Shown in pieces: positions 14,801 through 33,756 of a DNA stretch of 64,000 nt. The stretch lies in contig JBAIAA010001638.1 of the NCBI GenBank assembly GCA_037893245.1, positions 18,923-82,922 of the forward strand, given 5' to 3'. Under the pieces are notes generated by a model. It was not told the origin of the DNA, searched no databases, and was given only the letters and a program-made list of their open reading frames with translations. Origin of the DNA: Crossaster papposus. Taxonomy: Eukaryota; Echinodermata; Asteroidea; Velatida; Solasteridae. How positions within the stretch are numbered: the stretch's first letter is position 1; each line of letters starts with the position of its first letter. Both the position numbers and the translations under genes were made by a program.

Positions 14801-16173
14801 TTGTGACGTCATGCCGACTTAGAGAAGTAAATAATTTGTATAATTATATCGAGCAAAACTACCTGAAAAATTGTCCAGGAACACATAAATTATTAATTTT
14901 TGGTTTTTGTTTTCACTTGAGGCAACGTGACGTTCTACTTTGTCTTCATGAGAACGGGAGCATTAGTGTTAGAGTACGTCGTCGTCCGCGATCTACTAGC
15001 CCAAACACGGCAACACCTGTCGATCAAATTGGTAACTTTGTTGGACTAACAGGTACTAATACACTAACCTTATATACTAACCAGATATACTAACCCCATG
15101 AATTCAAAATACATCTAGATATATCTGTGTTGAACACTTTTAAAGTTAAGCATTTGCTGCTTGGGCATTTGCAGCTTTTTTATAATGTGCTCACTGAGAT
15201 CTCTGCCTCATTTTCTGTAATTCCCCACTCCAGGTGGCGACTCTCTTTCTCATGACCCCCACGACGTCATCTACGACCTTCGGTGTCAATCCGACCCGCT
15301 CCGTGTCACCAAACACATGCGAGCATTCGGTCTGGCTTGCTGTATGTCCACCGAGCGTCAGGTGGGTCTACTCATGAGCGACGGGCGACTGTTGATCTGG
15401 TCACTCATGACGGTCAATCATGTCCCGAGCAGCACCACTAACGTCCACACCCAGATGGTGCTGTCACCATTGTACTCCCCCGGGGTCGTCCCTGGGGTCA
15501 CCAACAGCGACTTTGAGTTTCTGCCCCCGCTGGCCAATGGGGGCAGACAGGTATTGCCCCACCCAAAGGTAAATATCAGGGCGTTTGTCAGGGTGTTTGT
15601 CTGATATTTGCAGGTTTTGTACTTACTTTGGATAGAATGTTGTATTCTGCCGCTATTTTTGTCATCTTAGATCATCTCAATGAATATCAATAGCTACAAC
15701 AATGTTGAAAAGCCGTGATACCAGCACTAAGAAACATTTTCAATTTTGTCCGAAAATGTTGTGGACTCTGCATATACTTTGTGCACAACCGCTGTGGCGT
15801 CAAAATGCTGCATTGTTTCCTATGCTTCTAAAGTATGATTAAATAATAAATGTGCTAAATGGAACCCTCTTATTCTTCTTAAAAACAGCACACAAAATGT
15901 CTAGCTATTGTAATCTGTTAGGTTTCAGTCTGTTCAATATTTAACACTAATAAAAGAGAATATATTATTTTGACTTTCCATTGTATTGAGAAATTTTTTT
16001 TTCTAAATTTGGGAACCAGTCTTAACCCATAATCGGCTTCACATCACTCGACGTACTTATTACGTTCATGCAGTATTTTCCAAATATAAATATTTTAAAT
16101 TATACAGGTGTCGTTAAGCGACTTGATCTGTCAGACGGACATTACAGGCAACGCTAACAGCACCCAGCAGCAG

Positions 16174-16205
<32 letters not shown>

Positions 16206-19200
16206 ACAAGGGCGTGGCGTGATACTCAAGTTTGTCCTGACAGGTCTGAGTTGCGGTGTAGCATCGGTGCCAACTGTCATCCGTATGTGCCCGCCGGTGA
16301 CAACCAGGAACATACACAAATACAAGCCACTGGTTGCATTAGGTAAGAACGCTTACCTAAGAACGCTTACCTAAGAACGCTTACCTAAGAACGCTTACCT
16401 AAGAACGCTTACCTAAGAACGCTTACCTAAGAACGCTTACCTAAGAGCGCTTACCTAAGAGCGCTTACCTAAGAGCGCTTACCTAAGAGCGCTTACCTAA
16501 GAGCGCTTACCTAAGAGCGCTTACCTAAGAACGCTCACCTAAGAACGCTCACCTAAGAACGCTCAACCTAAGAACGCTTAACCTAAGAACGCTTACCTAA
16601 GAATGCTTGAAGCTTGATGACATATACAGTACCTCCATCTTGCCATCATTGAGAACAAGGAATGCAGTCGAGTCCATCATAAGTCCCCCAGTCTCAATTT
16701 TAATCATAAGCTATTCAAATGAGGTTTGGCAAAAGCATTCATTCCTGTCATTGTTCATCCAGTTACTTGTGACTGGACTTGTCAAAGGACTTGTCAAAGG
16801 ACTTGTCAAAGGACTTGTAGGGACTTGACAACAACTCTGCCAGAGTGCCAGACTAGCGAAGGATTTATACAATGCATAATGTTGTTTTTGTGTTTTAGGA
16901 TCTTCTACCGGTCTAGTTCAGGTCTACAATCTGATAACAGGAGCCCTCTGGAGGGAGTATAACATCCACACTTCCTGTATAAGGTTTGACAACTACTCCC
17001 TTTTTTTATTTGTAAAATAATTTAAGCATTAACCCCAACAGTCCTGAATCCTCCAATTTCAAAAGAGGGATTTACTAATAACTTTTAGCCCCGCCAAAAA
17101 TGAAGAGTATTTCTATTTGTTTATATTTTGTTTATATTGTTTTTATTCTACAGGGGTATTGAGTGGGTGAGCCTGACCAGTTTCCTGTCCTACAGCTATC
17201 ACAACCCGCCGAGCAATGGTTTGGTCCGCAATGAGCTATTGCTTCTTGATCTTCTGACGGGCCGTACCACTCCATTACGGGGGCACAAAGGGGACGAGGC
17301 CCCAATTGAGACTGTAAAGGTGTCGCACTTGAAGTAAGCACACATTTAAAAGTTAATTTTTGTTTTTTATCTTTTTTTTTTGCAATTTTTTAAGGAAGAA
17401 ATTTGATCCAGTTTTATTAGATGTTATGTAAATGAATTTAAGAAATCAAGGGAACAATTTTTTTTTTTAATGAAACAAATATGCATTGTAAAATTTATTA
17501 TATCATTGTTATATCATTGTTATATCATTGTTATATCAGTGTTATATCAGTGTTATATCATTGTTATATCATTGTTATATCATTGTTATATCATTGTTAT
17601 ATCAGTGTTATATCATTGTTATATCATTGTTATATCATTGTTATATCATTGTTATATCAGTGTTATATCATTGTTATATCATTGTTATATCATTGTTATA
17701 TCATTGTTATATCATTGTTATATCAGTGTTATATCATTGTTATATCAGTGTTATATCATTGTTATATCATTGTTATATCATTGTTATATCATTGTTATAT
17801 CATTGTTATATCATTGTTATATCATTGTTATATCATTGTTATATCATTGTTATATCATTGTTATATCATTGTTATATCAGTGTTATATCAGTGTTATATC
17901 ATTGTTATATCATTGTTATATCATTGTTATATCATTGTTATATCAGTGTTATATCATTGTTATATCATTGTTATATCATTGTTATATCATTGTTATATCA
18001 TTGTCATATCAGTGTTATATCATTGTTATATCATTGTTATATCATTGTTATATCATTGTTATATCATTGTTATATCATTGTTATATCATTGTTATATCAT
18101 TGTTATATCATTGTTATATCATTGTTATATCATTGTTATATCATTGTTATATCAGTGTTATATCAGTGTTATATCATTGTTATATCATTGTTATATCATT
18201 GTTATATCAGTGTTATATCAGTGTTATATCAGTGTTATATCAGTGTTATATCATTGTTATATCATTGTTATATCATTGTTATATCAGTGTTATATCAGTG
18301 TTATATCTTACTTGACCACTTTGTATAGCTAGGGTTTTCAATATTTCCTTCAGTATATGATTTGTTTTCTTCAGAATAATACTAATTGTGGAACGTGGAA
18401 TTGTTATGGTCAGTTATAACTATTATTGCTGTTTGTTTTGATTTTTAGACAGTACTTCATTGTGATGTTGAAGGAGAAACCCTTTGAGATTTGGGATTTG
18501 AAGAGTCGGACAATCCTTAGAGAGATGCCGGCTAGTTTCCCTGTCATCACTGCACTGGTAAGATAAAACCCCTGGAAGAAAATTGGTTATCGTCTTGGTC
18601 TCTTTCCGGTGTGAACAAAAAGTGTTTAAAAGTCTTGGGACCCTGCTACATTGGGCCATCAAACACTGGGGTATAAAGTGTCAATTGTGAGACGATGAAA
18701 GCTAGTTCCATTGAAGACTGCCACAGTTGAGTTTAGTTGCACTCGGTGACCACAGACTCTGAGGCAGTTTAGCCTGGAGACATTTAGCCTGGAGACATTT
18801 AGCCTGGAGACATTTAGCCTGGAGACATTTAGCCTGGAGACATTTAGCCTGGAGACATTTAGCCTGGAGACATTTAGCCTGGAGACATTTAGCCTGGAGA
18901 CATTTAGCCTGGAGACATTTGGCCTGGAGACATTTGGCCTGGAGACATTTAGCCTGATGGATCTTGTTTCACTGACCGGGCTTGTCGTTTTGACAATGTT
19001 GAATTGTTCTGCGTTTAGCATGGTTTCTAGTTAAATTCAGGGTTGAGGCGGGGGGGGGGGGGGGGGTGTTAATGTTCTTATGGTTTTCGTTACAGCAAAC
19101 AAAGAACCTTAACATTCAGAAGTCATCAATCAATTTTACATTCTCATCGTTAATTTTTTGCTGGATTTTTATGTCGCAAAGATCAGTGCTCATATCACCA

Positions 19201-22200
19201 GAGCAATCTTGTAAAATGTTTTCTCACAATCTTACAGATAGAAGTGATGGAACAATGTTTATAACGTTGCATTGTTATTGTTGAACGGCGAAACACAGTA
19301 GTGAAATGCTTGTTTTTTTGGCAGGAATGGTCTCCAACTCATCACAAGAAGCGATCAACTGTGTCCATCCAGGAGCCTGTTGGTAGCTCCTCCTTGCTGG
19401 ATGCTACAGGAAGCACCCATCACATCTTAGGTAAACAGTGATCATCATCATCCACTGATGCACTTTTGTTCCGTCTTTCCCTCCTCTTAGTCTGTCTTTA
19501 AAATCTCAGATTTTTTGTTTTTGTTTTTCGATTGAAACAAGTGTTACAGTGCTTTGTTTACTAGAGTGTAAGTGCCAAAGGAATTCAGATCCTACCACGT
19601 AGGCTCAGAGTAGCTTCATGTGGTCCTTGACGAGTCCTCTAATTCAAGCATTTTTTTGTTAAAACGTGACTTTGTTTTGCTGATAAGACTTTTTCACCAT
19701 TTGTTTAGCTTCCGCTGGTTTGCAGTTGGGGGGAAAAGGATAGAAATTTTCTTTTCTTTTGCGATGTTGGTTGAGAGTTTTGTTTGAGCATTGAAAATTT
19801 CTAAATTTGAAACTGGACTCCGGCAATAGTCATTATTTAGAGCCTCATTTAAGCAACCTCAGCTGTTATTCAACTCCAATTCATGCTCCCAAACATTTTG
19901 TTTCATCTTAGATGGCAGCGGTGATAGCAAACTGTCCCAGACTTCGGCCACCAGGGAACACTTCTTTTTTGCCGAGAGCAACCGCATGCTGCATCACTTC
20001 TGGGTGGAAGGCAGCGTGGTCAAGGAAGGAGCACGTCTTCCATCGGACAGCGGTATGGGGTCTATCACCTGCATGACGTGGAAGGGAGAGACGTTAGTTA
20101 TGGGAGATGCCGACGGGATGCTAGGAGTGTGGGATCTCAAGGCTAGAGTCTCAAGGTAAGGAAGAGACGTTAGTAAAAGGGGGTGCCGAAGAATGCTAGG
20201 GGTGTGAGATCTCAAGGCTAGAGTCTCAAGGTAAGGAAGAGACGTTGGTTATGGGAGATGCCGACGGGATGCTAGGAGTGTGGGATCTCAAGGCTAGAGT
20301 CTCAAGGTAAGGAAGAGAGGCTGGTTATAGGGGGTGCCTATGGGATGCTAGGTGTGTGGGATCTCAAGGCTAGAGTCTCCAGGTAAGGCAGAGATGTTGG
20401 TTATGGGAGATGCCGACGGGATGCTAGGTGTGTGGGATCTCAAGGCTAGAGTCTCCAGGTAAGGAAGAGACGTTGGTTATGGGAGATGCCGTCGGGATGC
20501 TAGGAGTGTGGGATCTCAAGGCTAGAGTCTCAAGGCTAGAGTCTCAAGGCTAGAGTCTCAAGGCTAGAGTCTCAAGGCTAGAGTCTCAAGGCTAGTCTCA
20601 AGGCTAGAGTCTCAAGGCTAGAGTCTCAAGGCTAGAGTCTCAAGGCTAGAGTCTCAAGGCTAGAGTCTCAAGGTAAGGGCGAGACATTGGTTATAGGAGG
20701 TGCCTATGGGATGCTAGGGTTGTGGGATCTCAATGCTTTTTACGTTTTACATTTCACTTTGTGTTCAGGAATTATCCAACTCACCGCTCCTCCATTAAGA
20801 AGGTCAAGTTTGCTCCAGGCAAGGGGAATCTGAAGATCTTGTGTCTGTGGAGCGAAGGCCTGGATATATGGGATATTAAGGAGGTAATTCTCATACAAGT
20901 TTTAAGTTAATACATTAGGCTTTACACCAGTTTGCGCCGGGATTAATTGTACATTGACCAGGCTCAGGATTGTTTTCTACGAACCTTGATCCGAGACGGG
21001 TTCAGGCCAGCATCTTATGCTAGCACACCCTGATATTTACGGCCTCGCTCACTTTGAGCCAGTTGCTCACAGATATTTCCGGCCTTAGTCGTGACGTTTT
21101 TCTTTGTCATCCGTTTTGAATTCTGGGAAAACTTTGCATGTTTACCCGTCAACCGACGCGAACTGATTAATGCCATCAATGTCTCATGTTCTCGCTGGCA
21201 AAATTATTTTTTAGAAAACAGTTTTTCTATTTACAAAACCTAATGTTGATTTATGTGCATTCCAGTTTAGACTTTGGATTTCATCAAGTTTATTGTGCAT
21301 GCAACCTCAAGAAAGAGTTTCCAGAATTGTTTTGTTGCCAAATCCCAATGTTTAGGTTCGAGGTACCAGTTCCATGAGGGTTACCAAGGAACAGACTAAG
21401 TTGATTGATGCTGACTGGGCCGCCTCCGATAAGCCGATCATTGTCAGTTCCGATGGATGTATTCGAGTCTACGACATTAAGCTCAAGACAACATGCTCTC
21501 CTATGGACTTTGCAGAATTCGCTGGTAAACTGACTAGATCTTGTATTTATTCATGTGGTGGTTTTTTTTGTGGGTAAATGGTAAATAAACGGTTAAATTT
21601 TGTATTATTTATTTTTATTTTGTTTAATCTGAAATTTTGTGCTGGTCAATATGTCTTTACATAACTTCTTTGTCCTGGTTCCCTGCTGTGCTTTATGAAG
21701 CACGTAGCTGTTGGTAACCGGTGAGAAAACCAGTAGTCTCGTCCTGAATTATTGACGAGTTCAGTGTCTCGATGGAGTAGTCAAGGTCAAAGGTTGTTCG
21801 GGATAAAATCACTATGTTACCCGAACGTGATTTCTGATTGTAATTAACATATGCATGTCGTGCGACAAGCACAATTGAAATACCGTTTTGTTCATACCGT
21901 TTTGTTCAACTACTGTGGATTAAAGCGAGGGTAGTCAATCACTCGGACTTGTTCCTAGTTAGATTGCTTTGTTATCCCTGAGACTTCAATGTTGCCATTT
22001 ATTTACCTTCTCAGACCCAGTGTTCTGCCCCTACCTACTGTCTCCTAAGGCAGCCCTAGCTATGAAGTACACCATGCAGCATCAGCCATGGAATGATGAG
22101 TACACGCTACAACTCAGCAAGGAATAGTAAGTGACTCAGTCAACAACTAACAATGACAAATACCGCAACAAAAATGACCACAAAATGTCTACAATACCGA

Positions 22201-25200: not shown

Positions 25201-28200
25201 GTTTAGACATTTAAGATGTGAAGAACAAAATAAGCGTTACCCTTTCCATCTGCTGTGGAAAGCATTTACGATATTGAGACAATTTCTGTTCTATCCATAA
25301 ATATTGAAACCATTTGAAAAAAATAATTACAGCAAAACTTGGGTTTTTTTTAATTTCCAGTGAAACTCCAGAAGATGAAAACTTCATCAAAAATGTCAAT
25401 GACCAGTTTGACATCATGCCAGTGAAGATAAAGAATTACCTCCCCATTTGTCCCTATGGTACGGCCCAGCGCTGCCTGCTTGCTGCACAGCTCTTTGGGG
25501 ACGAGGCAGAGACCACTTTCTGGACGGTGGCACTGCAGTATCTCAAGGCAGAGAAGGCGAGGGTGAACTGCACCGTCCATAATGTAAGAATACTAAATTG
25601 CTGAATACACACTTCAGGGAATATTTATGAAGTTACTTACTTAAATAGTATTATTAATTCTTTCTGATAATAAAACCAAGGATTCCTCGTGCCTTAGGCA
25701 CTGTAGCTCACAAGCCTGAAGAAACCTGCTGAAAAGACAAAGACAAGGTTTTGGAGATGGGAGGAAAACCCCTAGTATTGGCCCAGGCGGGATTCGAACC
25801 CGGGTCACAGCAGTGGAAAGCAAGGATAGAACCACTACGCCAACCTGACTCCCCCACTTGGCATACAGGTTTATGGCATACATTTTATGGCCTCTTAAAC
25901 AAAGACATTGATGGAATAGTTGGTAGAGCACCGGAACGGCAATCCGGTGGTTACAGGTTTTGAACCCCACTCCGAGTCAATTTCGTAGTTTTTTCTCTCT
26001 TGTCTCAGTCCACAACAGACAACCCAGGAGCAGGGTACCACTCGGATCCTTTCCAAGGTGAGGTGCCTGGTGTTCTGCCTTCTAGTAACAACAGGTCGCT
26101 ATTGATGGACACCAGGGAAGAGGAAGCGGTTACCAGCTGTTCCTGCATCAAGGAACCATTGCTGGATACCTGCTATGATATCCTGTGTGATAGCAAGTCA
26201 TATCAGGTGGGTCAAAGGTCGTCGTATTATTATTTGAAGGTCACTGAATTCTATGGGAACAGAATTTTGTATAGGAAAGACTTGAGGGGCTCTGCTATTT
26301 TGCATATTGGTGGAAATTATTTATTGGTTTTGTAATAATTAAGATAAAATTGACTTTTTGTTCTTTTGTTTGTTTTTTCTTAGAAATACCAGCTCGAGCG
26401 TTTGAGTCTTCATGATAGTAAGCGATCTACTCATGATCATACAATGAAGTGTGCCGAAAACCTTATACTTATGGGACAGGTAATTATGTGAAAATTTTTA
26501 ACGTTTTCCTGCATTTGTAATATTTTCTCTCGTTGTTGCGTATAAAACAATTAACATTTGTTTAGGCTAGTAGTTAAAATGTCTGTCATCCTATACAAAT
26601 CTTTGCTATCTTATCAATTACCTGTGTTTTTTTTCCTGAAATTTCAATATGCAAGTAATATCTGCAAAGTAGAAATTTAATATCCATGAGTCCGTAGATA
26701 CTTTAATAAGATCTGACATTCTTTTCTTTTTTTCTTGACAGTTTGACCGAGCAGTGCAGTTGTACCTGGAGACGGAAGCTGAGAACGAAAGTTACTATCT
26801 GGATTCCATCTTGGCTTGTCTGGTTGCCACGGTGAAGTCAACCGGGGCATCACAAAGCACCATTAAACTGGTCGCTACCAGTCTGATCGCTAACAACAAA
26901 CTCTCAGGTAAAACAACACTAAACCAATTATGCATTCTGTGACGTATTTGTTTACTTAAGCAGTTCGCGCCGAGGCGCGGGATTATTTTTAACGGAACTC
27001 GATCCGAGGCGTGTTCAGGCCGATTGTTCTGGGAAGCACACCCACGCATTTCCAGGCCTTGCTCGCGGCGTGTTTATGCATCATCCGTTTTGAATCTGGG
27101 GGAAACTTTGCCTGTATATACGTCCTCCGGCGTGATATGGTTAAGATAAGTAGTTTGCAGCAACACCATGTGGTAATTCTCTTTAGTGAGATGTGTGGTT
27201 CTGAAAGTGGGTTGGACTTGTCTCGACGCAGTATTGTGATGGGTGACCGGTCTTATCTTGACATGTTGGGCTTGGTTTCCGTAGGGCTTGGCTGATCTGC
27301 AGACAAATCTCATCCGCAGCAGACTTGGTACATTGTAACACCATTTCATAATAGAGCGAGGTTACAAATTTGTGTCAATGAAATTGTATTTAAACAATTC
27401 CCCTCTCCAAATGGTAGGTTCTGTATTATTTGTTTGAATCGTATTTTATGATTGGCTGTTTCATTTGATTACAGAGGGGGTTCAGCTTCTGTGTCTGATC
27501 AACAAGGGCAGTGATGCGTGTCGTTATCTGATCACCTATGGGGAGTGGAACCAGGCCGTGTGGCTCGCCAAGGTAACAAGTTTGTCATTTTGGAACTATC
27601 CCAAGCTTTTGTTACCATGAAAAAAGAAGATTTTGTCAATATTGTAATGCACAAACGATAGGAATTGTTTATGGTTTTTGTAATTTTGTAACAACTTTTT
27701 TGGTTGTGATGTAGTATATTTGAAATAGTTGGCATGAAATAGTAAAATTCCTGATTGTTTAACTGCATGTACTGTTACGGTTTGTCTTGTAGGCTACCCT
27801 ACCCTTTTCTGAATACTTTACTGTATTACGTCGTTACGTTGACTATCTCTGCTCGCCGACCATCAACCAGAAGACCAAAGCCATCTTAGTCATGCTGTCT
27901 ATGGGTCAGTTCCAGCAGGTCCTGGAGGTTCTTATGAGGTTAGTATTCTAGTCAGTACCGAGCACCAGGGATGTAGTCGAGTCCATCACAAGTCCCTGCA
28001 AGTCCCTGCAAGTCCATCACAAGTCCTTCAGTTCCAATTCAAATCACAAGCTATTCAAATCAGCTTTGACAAAAGCATTCCTTTGTCATTGTTCATCCAA
28101 TTACTTGTGACCGCCTTTATGAAGGGACTTGTGACTGGCTTCACGAAAGGACTTGTGAAAGGACTTGCAGGGACTCGACTACAACCCTGCCGAGCACACA

Positions 28201-31200
28201 CAAAACCAATGGGGTTGGTACAGACTGTAAAGGTAGTATACACCATTGATAATTGCTCAAATTACCATGAATGGGTGGATTTGGGGGGTTGTATTTTATA
28301 GTAAATATTGTTTAACTAACCTGTCCGAAGTTTTTACAATCATGAATGCCAAGAAAAGCACGAAAAACAGCGTTTGTTTTCAACTGGCGTCGAGCAGTGA
28401 TTCTGATGTTATTTGTGTTTTTTTCGCGATCAATGGTTACATATCAATGAATGTTTTTCTCTTGAAAATAAGCTGACCGCTTTGAAAATGGATCTCAATA
28501 AATCAAATTTACATCTTAAAGTTTAACATTGTACCCGGACCTGAATTGATTTGTTGTATTTGTTTTCCAGTATGCATTACTATGATCGTGCCGGCATGTT
28601 CGCTGAGGCCTGTGCAGAGTTTGACGTCTTGCCAGACACAGAAGAGATTCATATCCTTTTGAAAGAGTTTACGATGAGTTACTTTTAGTTACAATTTTAG
28701 TACAGGAAAAATACGTTTAGACCTCACACCAATTGAAAGCATTTTCATAAGGTCCCTAATAAGACTTAATAAAAGTCTTTAAAAATCCAAGTGGTGGAAA
28801 TATTACTAATTTGAATAAAGCATTAGATATTAGTTATGGGCGATTAGTTATGGGCTATTAATCATGGGCTATTAATCATGGGCTATTAATCATGGGCAAT
28901 TAATCATGGGCAAATAATCATGGGCAATTAATCATGGGCAATTAATCATGGGCTATTAATCATGGGCTATTAATCATGGGCAATTAATCATGGGCAATTA
29001 ATCATGGGCAATTAATCATGGGCAATTAATCATGGGCAATTAATCATGGGCAATTAATCATGGGCAATTAATCATGGGCAATTAATCATGGGCTATTAAT
29101 CATGGGCTATTAATCATGGGCTATTAATCATGGGCTATTAATCATGGGCTATTAATCATGGGCTATTAATCATGGGCAATTAATCATGGGCAATTAATCA
29201 TGGGCAATTAATCATGGGCAATTAATCATGGGCAATTAATCATGGGCAATTAATCATGGGCTATTAATCATGGGCTATTAATCATGGGCTATTAATCATG
29301 GGCAATTAATCATGGGCAATTAATCATGGGCAATTAATCATGGGCAATTAATCATGGGCAATTAATCATGGGCAATTAATCATGGGCAATTAATCATGGG
29401 CAATTAATCATGGGCAATTAATCATGGGCAATTAATCATGGGCAATTAATCATGGGCTATTAATCATGGGCTATTAATCATGGGCTATTAATCATGGGCT
29501 ATTAATCATGGGCAATTAATCATGGGCAATTAATCATGGGCAATTAATCATGGGCAATTAATCATGGGCAATTAATCATGGGCAATTAATCATGGGCAAT
29601 TAATCATGGGCAATTAATCATGGGCTATTAATCATGGGCTATTAATCATGGGCTATTTATCATGGGCTATTTATCATGGGCTATTTATCATGGGCTATTT
29701 ATCATGGGCTATTAATCATGGGCAATTAATCATGGGCAATTAATCATGGGCAATTAATCATGGGCTATTAATCATGGGCTATTAATCATGGGCTATTAAT
29801 CATGGGCAAATAATCATGGGCTATTAATCATGGGCTATTAATCATGGGCTATTAATCATGGGCTATTAATCATGGGCAATTAATCATGGGCAATTAATCA
29901 TGGGCAATTAATCATGGGCAATTAATCATGGGCTATTAATCATGGGCTATTAATCATGGGCTATTAATCATGGGCTATTAATCATGGGCTATTAATCATG
30001 GGCTATTAATCATGGGCTATTAATCATGGGCTATTAATCATGGGCTATTAATCATGGGCTATTAATCATGGGCTATTAATCATGGGCTATTAATCATGGG
30101 CAATTAATCATGGGCAAATTAATCATGGGCAAATTATCATGGGCTATTAATCATGGGCTATTAATCATGGGCTATTAATCATGGGCTATTAATCATGGGC
30201 TATTAATCATGGGCTATTAATCATGGGCAATTAATCATGGGCAATTAATCATGGGCAATTAATCATGGGCAATTAATCATGGGCAATTAATCATGGGCAA
30301 TTAATCATGGGCAATTAATCATGGGCAATTAATCATGGGCAATTAATCATGGGCAATTAATCATGGGATATTAATCATGGGATATTAATCATGGGATATT
30401 AATCATGGGCTATTAATCATGGGCTATTAATCATGGGCTATTAATCATGGGCAATTAATCATGGGCAATTAATCATGGGCTATTAATCATGGGCAATTAA
30501 TCATGGGCTATTAATCATGGGCTATTAATCATGGGCTATTAATCATGGGCAATTAATCATGGGCAATTAATCATGGGCAATTAATCATGGGCAATTAATC
30601 ATGGGCAATTAATCATGGGCAATTAATCATGGGCTATTAATCATGGGCTATTAATCATGGGCAATTAATCATGGGCTATTAATCATGGGCTATTAATCAT
30701 GGGCTATTAATCATGGGCTATTAATCATGGGCAATTAATCATGGGCAATTAATCATGGGCTATTAATCATGGGCTATTAATCATGGGCAATTAATCATGG
30801 GCAATTAATCATGGGCAATTAACCATGGGCAATTAATCATGGGCAATTAATCATGGGCTATTAATCATGGGCTATTAATCATGGGCTATTAATCATGGGC
30901 TATTAATCATGGGCTATTAATCATGGGCTATTAATCATGGGCTATTAATCATGGGCTATTAATCATGGGCTATTAATCATGGGCTATTAATCATGGGCTA
31001 TTAATCATGGGCAATTAATCATGGGCAATTAATCATGGGCAATTAATCATGGGCAATTAATCATGGGCTATTAATCATGGGCTATTAATCATGGGCTATT
31101 AATCATGGGCTATTAATCATGGGCTATTAATCATGGGCTATTAATCATGGGCTATTAATCATGGGCTATTAATCATGGGCTATTAATCATGGGCAATTAA

Positions 31201-33756
31201 TCATGGGCAATTAATCATGGGCTATTAATCATGGGCTATTAATCATGGGCTATTAATCATGGGCTATTAATCATGGGCAATTAATCATGGGCAATTAATC
31301 ATGGGCAATTAATCATGGGCAATTAATCATGGGCTATTAATCATGGGCTATTAATCATGGGCTATTAATCATGGGCAATTAATCATGGGCAATTAATCAT
31401 GGGCAATTAATCATGGGCTATTAATCATGGGCTATTAATCATGGGCTATTAATCATGGGCTATTAATCATGGGCTATTAATCATGGGCTATTAATCATGG
31501 GCTATTAATCATGGGCAATTAATCATGGGCAATTAATCATGGGCAATTAATCATGGGCTATTAATCATGGGCAATTAATCATGGGCTATTAATCATGGGC
31601 TATTAATCATGGGCAATTAATCATGGGCTATTAATCATGGGCTATTAATCATGGGCTATTAATCATGGGCAATTAATCATGGGCTATTAATCATGGGCTA
31701 TTAATCATGGGCTATTAATCATGGGCTATTAATCATGGGCTATTAATCATGGGCTATTAATCATGGGCAATTAACCATGGGCAATTAACCATGGGCTATG
31801 AATCCAATCATGGGCTATGAATCCAATCATGGGCTATGAATCCAATCATGGGCTATGAATCCAATCATGGGCTATGAATCCAATCATGGGCTATGAATCC
31901 AATCATGGGCTATGAATCCAATCATGGGCTATGAATCCAATCATGGGCTATGAATCCAATCATGGGCTATGAATCCAATCATGGGCTATGAATCCAATCA
32001 TGGGCTATGAATCCAATCATGGGCTATGAATCCAATCATGGGCTATGAATCCAATCATGGGCTATGAATCCAATCATGGGCTATGAATCCAATCATGGGC
32101 TATGAATCCAATCATGGGCTATGAATCCAATCATGGGCTATGAATCCAATCATGGGCTATGAATCCAATCATGGGCTATGAATCCAATCATGGGCTATGA
32201 ATCCAGTCATGGGCTATGAATCCAGTCATGGGCTATGAATCCAGTCATGGGCTATGAATCCAGTCATGGGCTATGAATCCAGTCATGGGCTATTAAACCA
32301 GTCATGGGCTATTAAACCAGTCATGGGCTATTAAACCAGTCATGGGCTATTAAACCAGTCATGGGCTATTAAACCAGTCATGGGCTATTAAACCAGTCAT
32401 GGGCTATTAATCCAGTCATGGGCTATTAATCCAGTCATGGGCTATTAATCCAGTCATGGGCTATTAATCCAGTTATGGGCTATTAATCCAATTATGGGCT
32501 ATTAATCCAATTATGGGCTATTAATCCAATTATGGGCTATTAATCCAATTATGGGCTATTAATCCAATTATGGGCTATTAATCCAATTATGGGCTATTAA
32601 TCCAATTATGGGCTATTAATCCAATTATGGGCTATTAATCCAATTATGGGCTATTAATCCAATTATGGGCTATTAATCCAATTATGGGCTATTAATCCAA
32701 TTATGGGCTATTAATCCAATTATGGGCTATTAATCCAATTATGGGCTATTAATCCAATTATGGGCTATTAATCCAATTATGGGCTATTAATCCAATTATG
32801 GGCTATTAATCCAATTATGGGCTATTAATCCAATTATGGGCTATTAATCCAATTATGGGCTATTAATCCAATTATGGGCTATTAATCCAATTATGGGCTA
32901 TTAATCCAATTATGGGCTATTAATCCAATTATGGGCTATTAATCCAATTATGGGCTATTAATCCAATTATGGGCTATTAATCCAATTATGGGCTATTAAT
33001 CCAATTATGGGCTATTAATCCAATTATGGGCTATTAATCCAATTATGGGCTATTAATCCAATTATGGGCTATTAATCCAATTATGGGCTATTAATCCAAT
33101 TATGGGCTATTAATCCAATTATGGGCTATTAATCCAATTATGGGCTATTAATCCAATTATGGGCTATTAATCCAATTATGGGCTATTAATCCAATTATGG
33201 GCTATTAATCCAATTATGGGCTATTAATCCAATTATGGGCTATTAATCCAATTATGGGCTATTAATCCAATTATGGGCTATTAATCCAATTATGGGCTAT
33301 TAATCCAATTATGGGCTATTAATCCAATTATGGGCTATTAATCCAATTTTTTTTTTTCAAAAAGTCTTATTTTAGTCAATTTTAATAAACAAAACGCAAG
33401 ACTAAACCCTTACAATTGTAAATGTTTTAAAAATGTCAAATTTTGGCCAATTTTAATAAATAAGTAAGGCTAACCTCTTACAATAAATTATGTCATAAGC
33501 AAGACTAACCCTTTAAAAAATTTCAAAAAAGTCATATTTGGGCTATTTAAAAAATGCAAGGCTAAACCCCTTTTTAATTCCAATTCTTGACCTTGACTAT
33601 TTTTTCCCCTCACGAACCCTTCTTGAGAAGGTTTACTTGGAGTATGCTCGTTTCCTTCTAGCGTTAGGCAACCGCAGAGCGTACGGCTACTACTGTAACA
33701 AAGCAGCAGAGAAGGGAAACAAAGTCAGTCAAGAACTGGAATGGATGGAAGATTAA
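11830..33756 (+). CDS. WDR11: WDR11: WD-repeat protein of Golgi/endosome tethering and ciliogenesis
   Basis: Coding exons: 11830-11894, 12732-12801, 13117-13312, 13605-13778, 14016-14223, 14340-14543, 14922-15052, 15234-15568, 16108-16342, 16899-16983, 17154-17333, 18449-18557, 19325-19430, 19912-20155, 20769-20883, 21356-21524, 22015-22126, 25361-25583, 26009-26206, 26384-26479, 26742-26907, 27475-27572, 27793-27938, 28571-28650, 33614-33756. They sum to 3888 bp (1295 codons plus stop) with every phase matching; vertebrate WDR11 is about 1224. Matches seen along the protein include RTITGALHGQNK, VKWARENYHH, LVYPREILILDLD, GIEWVSLTSFLS, FAPGKGN, SQSTIKLVATS and YGEWNQAVWLAK. In the family, WD repeats form two beta-propellers followed by an alpha-solenoid. 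WDR11 works with FAM91A1 and C17orf75 in capturing endosome-derived vesicles at the trans-Golgi, and in Hedgehog signalling and ciliogenesis. The ATG at 11830 is the only one after an in-frame stop (11806), giving a slightly shorter N-terminus than in vertebrates. Odd points: a 15-residue polyQ in exon 9, repeats next to several splice sites, and a U12-type last intron. Confidence 0.95.
12161..12184. repeat. Perfect 24-bp palindrome in WDR11 intron 1
   Basis: CCATGGAGGAATATTCCTCC plus ATGG is perfectly self-complementary with no loop. CCATGG occurs again a few bases downstream (12190-12195). It may be a relic of an inverted duplication. No regulatory role can be assigned. Confidence 0.8.
16165..16209 (+). 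repeat. CAG/CAA polyglutamine tract in WDR11 exon 9
   Basis: Fifteen consecutive glutamine codons (11 CAG and 4 CAA, mixed) lie between NANST and GRGVILKFVLTG. The corresponding part of vertebrate WDR11 is a short non-repetitive linker before the conserved FLLTGL-type segment. The tract therefore lengthens a loop rather than interrupting a propeller blade (inference). Confidence 0.9.
16343..16605 (+). repeat. 14-bp minisatellite antisense to the adjoining 5' splice site
   Basis: Beginning right at the exon 9 donor, the unit CTTACCTAAGAACG (14 bp; variants GAGCG, CTCACC and CTTAACC) is repeated 18 times, with unit starts from 16352 to 16592. The donor itself reads TTAG|GTAAG (16339-16347). 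CTTACCTAA is its exact reverse complement, so the first copy forms a 9-bp stem with an AACG loop over the splice site. Thirteen copies plus the last contain CTTACCT, which equals seven bases of the 5' end of U1 snRNA. Confidence 0.9.
16660..16838. mobile_element. Inverted-repeat element (family D), diverged copy
   Basis: The left end GCAGTCGAGTCCATCATAAG and the right end GGGACTTGACAACAACTCT are roughly inverted copies. Near the right end a small tandem of GGACTTGTCAAA occurs three times. The same element occurs at 27967-28188 with better-kept ends. It lies in WDR11 intron 9. Confidence 0.7.
17498..18307 (+). repeat. 11-bp minisatellite, about 74 copies, in WDR11 intron 11
   Basis: The unit TTATATCATTG is repeated with one common variant, TTATATCAGTG, and a single CATATC substitution. 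Because 11 is not a multiple of three and the unit has no stop in any phase, all three forward frames stay open for more than 265 codons. They encode the same 11-residue hydrophobic repeat (ISLLYHCYIIV) in different registers. There is no splice, start or conservation evidence of translation; I treat it as non-coding. Confidence 0.95.
18771..18950. repeat. 15-bp minisatellite, 12 copies, in WDR11 intron 12
   Basis: The unit AGCCTGGAGACATTT is repeated 12 times, two copies having GG for AG. On the minus strand it reads as NVSRL repeats, which is an accident of the 15-bp period. Confidence 0.95.
20156..20690 (+). repeat. Tandem copies of the WDR11 exon 14 tail with its splice donor
   Basis: The last roughly 70 bp of exon 14 plus its donor are repeated downstream with a period of about 76 bp. 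GT donors in the context CAAGGTAAGG or CCAGGTAAGG occur at 20156 (the expected one), 20231, 20307, 20383, 20459 and 20673. Between the fifth and sixth lies a 14-bp sub-array of CTAGAGTCTCAAGG (about 20515-20672, roughly 11 copies). Using any donor after the first reads AGG TAA, an immediate stop after codon 781. Confidence 0.85.
20927..21166. mobile_element. MITE family B copy in WDR11 intron 15
   Basis: About 240 bp from CCAGTTTGCGCCGGGATTAA to CCGACGCGAACTGA, followed by TTAA (21167-21170). The interior shows the family blocks GACGGGTTCAGGCC, GCACACCCTGATATTTACGG and ATCCGTTTTGAATTCTGGG. Confidence 0.8.
22876..22926 (+). CDS. Possible 51-bp cassette exon of WDR11
   Basis: A pyrimidine-rich acceptor (ATAACCTTTCTCTTAG) is followed by 51 GC-richer bases and the donor GTAAGA. 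The length is a multiple of three. Inserted between the phase-2 junction of exons 17 and 18 it keeps the frame and adds 17 residues in the stretch SSQVQSALPGEDKPRPH. Vertebrate WDR11 has a somewhat longer linker at this place, before the QRCLL motif. It could equally be a chance exon-like stretch. Confidence 0.4.
24655..24965 (+). mobile_element. tRNA-derived SINE, 5'-truncated
   Basis: A pol III B-box-like GGGTTCGATTCCC at 24661 is followed by the body GGGCCTTCCGGTTTTCCTCC. Then come a GGCTGGCGCC...GGCGCCAGC-like hairpin near 24828-24852 and a tail ending about 24965. No A box is visible. The GGTTTTCCTCCC block is shared with the minus-strand SINE at 25672-25860, so they are probably one family. 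Confidence 0.65.
25672..25860 (-). mobile_element. tRNA-derived SINE with intact A and B boxes
   Basis: Read on the minus strand, a tRNA-like head contains TGGCGTAGTGGTT (A box) and GGGTTCGAATCCC (B box). It is followed by GGGGTTTTCCTCCC and a tail reaching AAGGCACGAGGAATCC. The head does not close into a proper acceptor stem, so it is a SINE rather than a tRNA gene. It lies in WDR11 intron 18. Confidence 0.7.
25905..25980 (+). mobile_element. tRNA-like fragment next to the SINE
   Basis: AGTTGGTAGAGCACC resembles an A box and GGTTTTGAACCCC resembles a B box, with 30-odd bases between them. There is no flanking body. It is probably a second tRNA-derived element, just upstream of the exon 19 acceptor (26007-26008). 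Confidence 0.5.
26960..27140. mobile_element. MITE family B copy with TTAA on both sides
   Basis: TTAA at 26956-26959 and 27141-27144 flank a 181-bp element. It begins GCAGTTCGCGCCG, contains GATCCGAGGCGTGTTCAGGC and GCACACCCACGCATTTCC, and ends CCTCCGGCG followed by a decayed end. It lies in WDR11 intron 21. Confidence 0.8.
27967..28188. mobile_element. Inverted-repeat element (family D), better-kept copy
   Basis: The left end TGTAGTCGAGTCCATCACAA and the right end GGACTCGACTACAACCCT form an imperfect terminal inverted repeat. The interior AAATCACAAGCTATTCAAAT and GTCATTGTTCATCCA match the copy at 16660-16838. It lies in WDR11 intron 23. Confidence 0.75.
28231..28440 (+). mobile_element. 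MITE family A, 3'-truncated copy
   Basis: It begins AGGTAGTATACACCATTGAT after GTAA (a decayed TTAA) and follows the element at 449-786 through CTGTCCGAAGTTTTTACAA. It then loses similarity around 28440, so the right terminal repeat is absent. Confidence 0.75.
28834..31790 (+). repeat. 14-bp minisatellite, about 210 copies
   Basis: The unit is ATGGGCTATTAATC, with a second common form ATGGGCAATTAATC and rare forms (ATTTATC, GATATTAATC, CAAATAATC). The two main forms occur in runs of about 2-12 units, typical of repeated local block duplication. It fills the first part of the U12-type intron of WDR11. Confidence 0.95.
31791..33347 (+). repeat. 19-bp minisatellite, about 82 copies, grown out of the 14-bp array
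   Basis: The unit is lengthened by five bases (CCAAT or CCAGT inserted after AAT). It changes along the array from ATGGGCTATGAATCCAATC through ATGGGCTATTAAACCAGTC to ATGGGCTATTAATCCAATT. The last form is homogeneous over about 45 copies. The stepwise order records successive waves of expansion. The array ends at a run of T at about 33347. Confidence 0.95.
33348..33575 (-). repeat. Diverged 60-bp repeats, inverted partner of 35330-35720
   Basis: Three to four imperfect units contain GCAAGGCTAACC-type and AATTTTAATAAA segments. They are the reverse complement of the units at 35330-35720 (GGGGTTAGCCTTGCAT, TATTAAAATTGGCC). They lie just before the branch site of the U12-type intron. Confidence 0.7.

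What the first reader, a model, noticed from the sequence alone, without database searches (positions are those of the whole stretch)
16339..16605. Intronic array of 18 units antisense to its own 5' splice site and mimicking the U1 snRNA 5' end
Seen directly: the WDR11 exon 9 donor TTAG|GTAAG is followed, four bases later, by its exact reverse complement CTTACCTAA, and this unit then repeats every 14 bp 18 times. The sense pre-mRNA can therefore fold a 9-bp hairpin over the donor, with 17 more competing partners. Known: the U1 snRNA 5' end contains ACUUACCUG and reads 5' splice sites. Fourteen of the units carry CUUACCU, the same seven bases. Inference: the array could mask this donor, act as a cis decoy for other GUAAG donors, or compete with U1. 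It may also be only an inverted duplication of the donor that expanded. I know of no described minisatellite of this kind.
Basis: partly seen in the sequence, partly recalled or inferred. Interest (0 to 1): 0.8.

Follow-up and report, generated by a model that had tools for sequence, protein, structure and literature searches.

The report
Splice-site copies repeated inside an intron
Just after one exon of an animal WDR11 gene, a 14-base repeat whose units mirror that exon's own splice signal occurs 18 times in each of the two assembled copies; it is predicted to fold over the splice signal, but it is most likely a repeat that grew out of the splice site rather than a purpose-built switch.

Summary
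The WDR11 exon-9 donor TTAG|GTAAG (16339-16347) is followed after four bases by 18 units (16352-16605); 14 carry its exact reverse complement. The array is real and probably allelic: of 40 scored genome matches to exon 9 plus intron 9, two are full-length (100% and 98%). Both have 18 units, in different internal order.

Folding supports possible masking. Freeing the donor costs 10.9 kcal/mol with the array, 4.0 without; 13 other WDR11 donors cost 0.03-7.35 and 60 shuffled arrays at most 9.05. Two units suffice and the first is dispensable: redundancy, not added strength.

'U1 mimicry' is not independent evidence: any complement of a consensus donor resembles the U1 5' end. Donor-first hairpins are not enriched genome-wide (28 places against 31 for the opposite order).

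Best reading: a donor-derived minisatellite, seeded by a short templated inverted duplication, passively making a donor hairpin. Closest known: donor-containing VNTRs of human ABCA7 and CBS; the antisense relation is the new variant. No RNA data were available, so no effect on splicing is shown.

The parts
16108..16342 (+). WDR11 exon 9 (235 nt, not a multiple of 3, so skipping would shift the frame); encodes a polyglutamine run and ...KYKPLVALG
16339..16347 (+). Exon 9 donor TTAG|GTAAG ('unit 0' of the array)
16348..16351 (+). AACG loop between donor and first antisense unit
16352..16605 (+). 18-unit array, consensus CTTACCTAAGAACG; 14 units carry CTTACCTAA
16671..16840 (+). Dispersed repeat in the rest of intron 9 (38 of the 40 scored genome matches fall on it, 80-87% identity); not part of the array
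   Evidence: query 551-741 = window 16658-16848; most rows 564-733
16899..16983 (+). WDR11 exon 10
20082..20673 (+). Second donor-containing array of the same gene (exon 14/intron 14): AGGTAAG at six places, five of them 75-76 bp apart, with a 14-bp array before the last

Best explanation
A donor-derived minisatellite. A short templated (fold-back) inverted duplication of the 5' splice site placed CTTACCTAA four bases after it; because TTA-NN-TAA is nearly palindromic, the copy was also a near-direct repeat of the donor (12 of 14), which let slippage or unequal exchange expand it to 18 units. In RNA the donor can pair with any of 14 perfect units as soon as the first has been transcribed. I expect at most a modest kinetic delay to U1 binding, tolerated by the gene, with no dedicated regulatory role. 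Shown: sequence, phase, two assembled copies, in-silico masking. Inferred: origin by fold-back, that the copies are alleles, tolerance, lack of selection.
For: Donor and units share phase. Exact complementarity is unlikely by chance (149 of 2,000,000) and rare by direct duplication plus 2, 3 or 4 substitutions (74, 121 and 143 of 400,000), while one templated inversion gives it at once. Short templated inverted duplications, most about 5-34 bp, are documented in yeast (PMC11724301, abstract and passages). An exact inverted match of 9 bases or more between an array and its flank occurs at 7 of 48 arrays in 264 kb of this genome, this one included; one is 16 bp. The two copies differ in unit order as minisatellite alleles do. 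The sense strand of the array holds no GT (read), so it adds no rival donors. Donor hairpins of this shape are not enriched genome-wide: 28 places against 31; after merging identical strings by eye, 18 against 22. Arrays of period 8-100 with 3 or more copies are common here: 20 in this window and 28 in 200 kb elsewhere.
Against: The hairpin is as stable as the U1-donor duplex (-9.4 against -9.6 kcal/mol), so 'no real effect' is not a safe default. Both copies hold exactly 18 units and an identical donor and first three units, while two neighbouring intron arrays differ by hundreds of bases between the copies (estimated from alignment ends), which could hint at constraint. No outgroup was available to see the pre-array state. 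Several of the seven flank matches are AT-rich or of low complexity.
Confidence: 0.68

Rival explanations
1. A working cis mask: the array is kept because it slows or regulates use of the exon 9 donor; redundancy of units buffers the mask against mutation.
For: Opening energy 10.9 against 4.0 without the array; above all 13 other WDR11 donors, above the 99th percentile of 300 random positions (9.55; their maximum was 14.3) and all 173 GTAA/GTGA sites tested (maximum 10.55); above all 120 shuffled controls. Masking reaches 9.07 at +18 nt of nascent RNA. Breaking the first unit leaves 10.8-11.0. The two copies give 10.8 and 9.8. Retention would add nine residues and then a stop.
Against: No sign of constraint on the pairing 9-mer: two variant types fall in its 9 positions and two in the 5 linker positions (read). 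Other donors with arrays beside them are not masked as strongly (E14 0.03, E7 6.48). No RNA data. Plain thermodynamic folding ignores proteins and helicases.
Confidence: 0.17
2. U1 competitor or trans decoy for other GUAAG donors.
For: 14 units hold CUUACCU.
Against: The match follows automatically from being a donor complement. No Rfam match in the window at gathering score. U1 is a very abundant RNA and a single intron is not (general knowledge). The exact two-unit pattern was found only at the two WDR11 copies. The species' own U1 could not be fetched.
Confidence: 0.02
3. Chance: an unrelated minisatellite that happens to abut a donor and to contain its complement.
For: Minisatellites are frequent in this window.
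Against: Phase match of 12 of 14 with the donor and 149 of 2,000,000 for the complement.
Confidence: 0.06
4. Donors of an antisense transcript: on the minus strand the array reads TTAG|GTAAG 14 times.
For: Sequence only.
Against: The exon-side sequence is WDR11 coding on the plus strand. An antisense gene was not searched for.
Confidence: 0.02
5. A wider process in which 5' splice sites seed tandem arrays in this genome.
For: Of 6 merged non-coding arrays among 14 mapped WDR11 donors, two start within 6 bp of a donor (E7, E9) and a third spans one (E14). Two or more starts within 6 bp: 0.018 (intron placement) or 0.0065 (free placement).
Against: Chosen after seeing the data, one gene. If spanning counts and arrays may fall anywhere, three or more is expected (0.57); the figure 0.00087 for three used a start rule that the E14 array does not meet and is withdrawn. 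The E7 array is marginal (2.8 copies) and less regular in the other copy. None of 6 further donors (21525, 25584, 26058, 26908, 27573, 27939; not all remaining exons were mapped) has a TRF array within 6 bp; the nearest starts 41 bp away. A genome-wide test could not be run.
Confidence: 0.04

Closest known systems
ABCA7 intron 18 VNTR (human; PMC5954066, abstract and passages seen)
   Same: Minisatellite immediately flanking an exon and including its splice donor; alleles vary; there length correlates with exon 19 skipping.
   Different: 25-bp unit in a C-rich region, the first two bases of the VNTR being the donor GT, in sense; here 14-bp units are reverse complements of the donor and hold no GT.
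CBS 31-bp VNTR c.1444_1467+7(16_21) (human; PMC2630376, passages seen; Lievers 2001 seen only as a reference)
   Same: Tandem array over an exon end and the first 7 intron bases (my reading of the HGVS name), 16-21 copies.
   Different: Units repeat the exon-donor boundary in sense; it resembles the exon 14 array of this window more than the exon 9 array.
5' splice-site structures of MAPT exon 10 and SMN exon 7/intron 7 (review PMC7404189, passages seen)
   Same: Local or distant pairing that hides a donor from U1 snRNP.
   Different: Described there with experimental work on single structures; here 14 equivalent partners and no experiment.
Intron gain by tandem genomic duplication (PMC4974935, title and start of abstract seen; the AGGT mechanism is recalled)
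   Same: Local duplication at a splice motif.
   Different: No new intron here; the copies have lost GT.

Membership tests
Donor-containing VNTR (ABCA7/CBS kind) | Tandem array touching or including an exon's splice donor | tested here: met
   TRF 16344-16608 with donor GT at 16343
Donor-containing VNTR (ABCA7/CBS kind) | Alleles differ in the array | tested here: met
   Two assembled copies: unit order differs, unit number equal (18 and 18); variation in number itself was not seen
Donor-containing VNTR (ABCA7/CBS kind) | Units repeat the donor in sense, offering extra donors | tested here: not met
   Units read CTTACCTAAG; no GT in the array. So it is filed as a variant, not a plain member
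Donor-containing VNTR (ABCA7/CBS kind) | Length affects splicing | not testable with these tools
   No RNA data
5' splice-site masking hairpin | Predicted stem includes the donor and is stronger than controls | tested here: met
   10.9 against 4.0 kcal/mol without array; shuffles at most 9.05
5' splice-site masking hairpin | Pairing kept by evolution (compensatory changes) | tested here: inconclusive
   Two copies only, no difference in donor or first unit; no other species available
5' splice-site masking hairpin | Disrupting it changes splicing | not testable with these tools
   Needs a minigene
U1 snRNA or U1-like RNA | Matches the U1 covariance model | tested here: not met
   0 matches of 4227 Rfam families in the window at gathering score

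The most novel reading that the evidence does not exclude
A self-antisense splice-donor minisatellite that works as a redundant, copy-number-buffered lock on its own donor: any of 14 units can hide the splice site, from about 18 nt of transcription onward, so masking survives mutation or loss of single units and array change could tune intron retention of WDR11.
Probability: 0.12. Interest if true: 0.75.

Novelty: new variant of a known kind. Interest (0 to 1): 0.4.

Why it matters
It is a natural experiment in which a splice site and a dose of perfect antisense partners sit in the same intron. Allelic or species series of the array would test directly how far local hairpins limit U1 access in living cells. 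It also offers a clear case for a splice site seeding a minisatellite.

Tried and rejected
U1 mimicry as independent evidence: rejected, since it restates donor complementarity. '17 competing partners' as a strengthening: rejected; opening energy is 8.5 with one unit, 10.3 with two, 10.9 with 18. A family of such hairpins genome-wide: not found, 28 places against 31 in the opposite order; both counts are lower bounds by the tool's own note and include repeat copies (18 and 22 different strings, merged by eye). The tool's backward control (870 and 758) is far larger for reasons not looked into and was not used. Relation of the array to the dispersed repeat of intron 9: none seen, the repeat lies downstream. 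A general link between arrays and inverted flank copies: weak, 7 of 48. Length constraint: 18 and 18 units in two copies, not enough. Arrays seeded by donors in general: first figure (0.00087) withdrawn after a re-run with a fitting rule; the six arrays leave out the exonic CAG run 16165-16205 and merge the overlapping rows 20082-20535 and 20514-20673. The genome-wide test of arrays at donors could not be run. The organism was not identified. Paper searches used for novelty: (searches found 0 papers; searches list only part of their 26, 7 and 28); the library holds open-licence papers only.

Full report
What is there. The window holds a WDR11 gene on the plus strand; exon translations joined by eye match WDR11 chains in the PDB (8xfb_D, E 3.8e-106), and exon 9 joins exon 10 without a gap, which fixes the donor at 16343. 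The exon 9 donor TTAG|GTAAG is followed by AACG and then by 18 units of CTTACCTAAGAACG or close variants, 16352-16605; 14 of 18 carry the exact reverse complement of the donor.

The donor is in phase with the array: TTAGGTAAGAACGC against TTACCTAAGAACGC, 12 of 14. TTA-NN-TAA is nearly palindromic, so swapping GG for CC makes the unit at once a direct and an inverted relative of the donor. A 14-mer drawn at random contains the complement in 149 of 2,000,000 trials; a direct copy with two, three or four substitutions reaches it in 74, 121 and 143 of 400,000. One templated inverted duplication explains the changed bases together; very short fold-back inversions, most about 5-34 bp, are described in yeast (PMC11724301, abstract and passages). 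That this happened here is inference.

Is it real and unique? The genome is held as 1.02 Gb in 1841 contigs. An exact 24-base two-unit pattern occurs in two contigs only (23 overlapping places). A query of the 793 bases from exon 9 to the start of exon 10 matches in full at the same two places, at 100% and 98%; the other 38 of the 40 scored matches (of 1767 candidates of the first look) are a dispersed repeat downstream of the array. The two contigs run in parallel through the compared region, at about 92-99.7% per aligned block outside the repeats (first 80 rows), so I take them as two haplotypes, not paralogues; that is inference. Both carry 18 units and 254 bp but in different order: 6 AACG, 6 AGCG, 1 AACG and 2 CTCACC units in the window, 3, 7, 2 and 3 in the other, followed by the same last three units; perfect complements number 14 and 13. 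Donor, loop and first three units are identical. Two separately assembled copies make an assembly artefact unlikely.

Folding. The minimal hairpin has -9.4 kcal/mol; the donor with the U1 5' end (recalled, unmodified) -9.6. The cost of freeing nine donor bases is 10.91 in context, against 0.03-7.35 for 13 other WDR11 donors, a 99th percentile of 9.55 for 300 random positions (maximum 14.3, so a few unrelated places are as closed) and a maximum of 10.55 for 173 GTAA/GTGA sites. Without the array it is 4.03; with one unit 8.52, two 10.28, 18 10.86; 60 dinucleotide shuffles reach at most 9.05 and 60 arrays of a shuffled unit at most 6.95; all units changed CC to GG give 3.30, and one base off in all units 3.20; a broken first unit alone still gives 10.76-10.98. 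At 25 C it is 12.6 against 5.2. Nascent RNA reaches 9.07 at +18 nt and stays between 8.56 and 11.14 after that. In a 400-nt context the preferred partner is the seventh unit (probability 0.90), not the first (0.02). The other copy gives 9.84. So the mask is strong in silico and redundant. The model knows nothing of U1 proteins, helicases or transcription-coupled loading of U1.

Function. Nothing here shows an effect on splicing. Exon 9 has 235 nt, so skipping shifts the frame; retention adds nine residues and then a stop. The exons that I read are open, which suggests that splicing proceeds. The pairing 9-mer is not visibly protected: variant types number two in its nine positions and two in the five linker positions (units). 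Donor-first hairpins AGGTAAG-N(3-25)-CTTACCT occur at 28 places genome-wide, two of them these copies, and the opposite order at 31 (18 and 22 different strings, merged by eye; lower bounds). Whether the other 26 places are at exons was not looked at, since no loci were cut. Hence no sign of a used class of such elements.

Other arrays at donors in the same gene. The E14 donor (20156) is followed by four further AGGTAAG copies 75-76 bp apart and a sixth at 20671 after a 14-bp array; six copies also stand in the other haplotype, with the last interval 30 bp longer. The first donor gives the human-like protein join; using a later one would put a TAA in frame (read). E7 (15053) is followed at +6 by 2.8 copies of ATATACTAACCAG. 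Two of six merged arrays start within 6 bp of a donor: 0.018 with placement in introns, 0.0065 with free placement. Counting the E14 array as spanning, three of six touch a donor; with free placement that is expected (0.57), with arrays confined to introns it is rare (0.00018), but the E14 array reaches into its exon and so does not fit that null. The 0.00087 had the same flaw and is withdrawn. The threshold was chosen after seeing the data, so this is a lead only; I lowered that rival from 0.05 to 0.04.

Known relatives. The ABCA7 VNTR (25-bp unit, includes the exon 18 donor; length correlates with exon 19 skipping; PMC5954066, abstract and passages) and the CBS 31-bp VNTR over an exon end and donor (PMC2630376, passages) are the same kind of object in sense orientation. 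Structures hiding donors are known for MAPT exon 10 and SMN exon 7/intron 7 (review PMC7404189, passages). An array antisense to its own donor was not seen in the listings (51 and 59 partial), in an open-licence library only.

Verdict. A true, non-random structure found in both assembled copies, best read as a minisatellite seeded from the splice donor by a templated inversion. Masking is a good, testable prediction; a regulatory role has about one chance in six.

Noticed in passing
window 20082-20673: Exon 14 end and donor AGGTAAG stand at six places (75-76-bp spacing for five, then a 14-bp TCTCAAGGCTAGAG array before the sixth): tandem real or decoy donors, like the human CBS VNTR; present in both assembled copies.
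   Followed up: partly
window 15053-15095: Donor of exon 7 is followed at +6 by 2.8 copies of a unit with TACTAAC, the yeast-like branch-point word (recalled).
   Followed up: partly
window 16165-16205: Polyglutamine run (CAG/CAA) inside WDR11 exon 9; same length in both copies with one synonymous difference.
   Followed up: partly
window 17498-18307 and 18768-18956: Intron arrays that appear to differ by roughly 570 and 860 bp between the two copies (estimated from alignment ends), unlike the exon 9 array (18 and 18 units).
   Followed up: partly
window 28828-33348: About 4.5 kb of 14-bp and then 19-bp satellite (212.6 and 82 copies) with a shared ATGGGC/TATTAATC core, downstream of open frames that I took for late WDR11 exons (not tested).
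   Followed up: no
L026 7383-7575: 43-bp array whose left edge region holds a 16-bp exact inverted match to the array; no exon annotation there.
   Followed up: no
window 16671-16840: Dispersed repeat in intron 9 with at least 38 further copies in the genome at 80-87% identity; by eye a similar stretch stands near 27970-28010.
   Followed up: no
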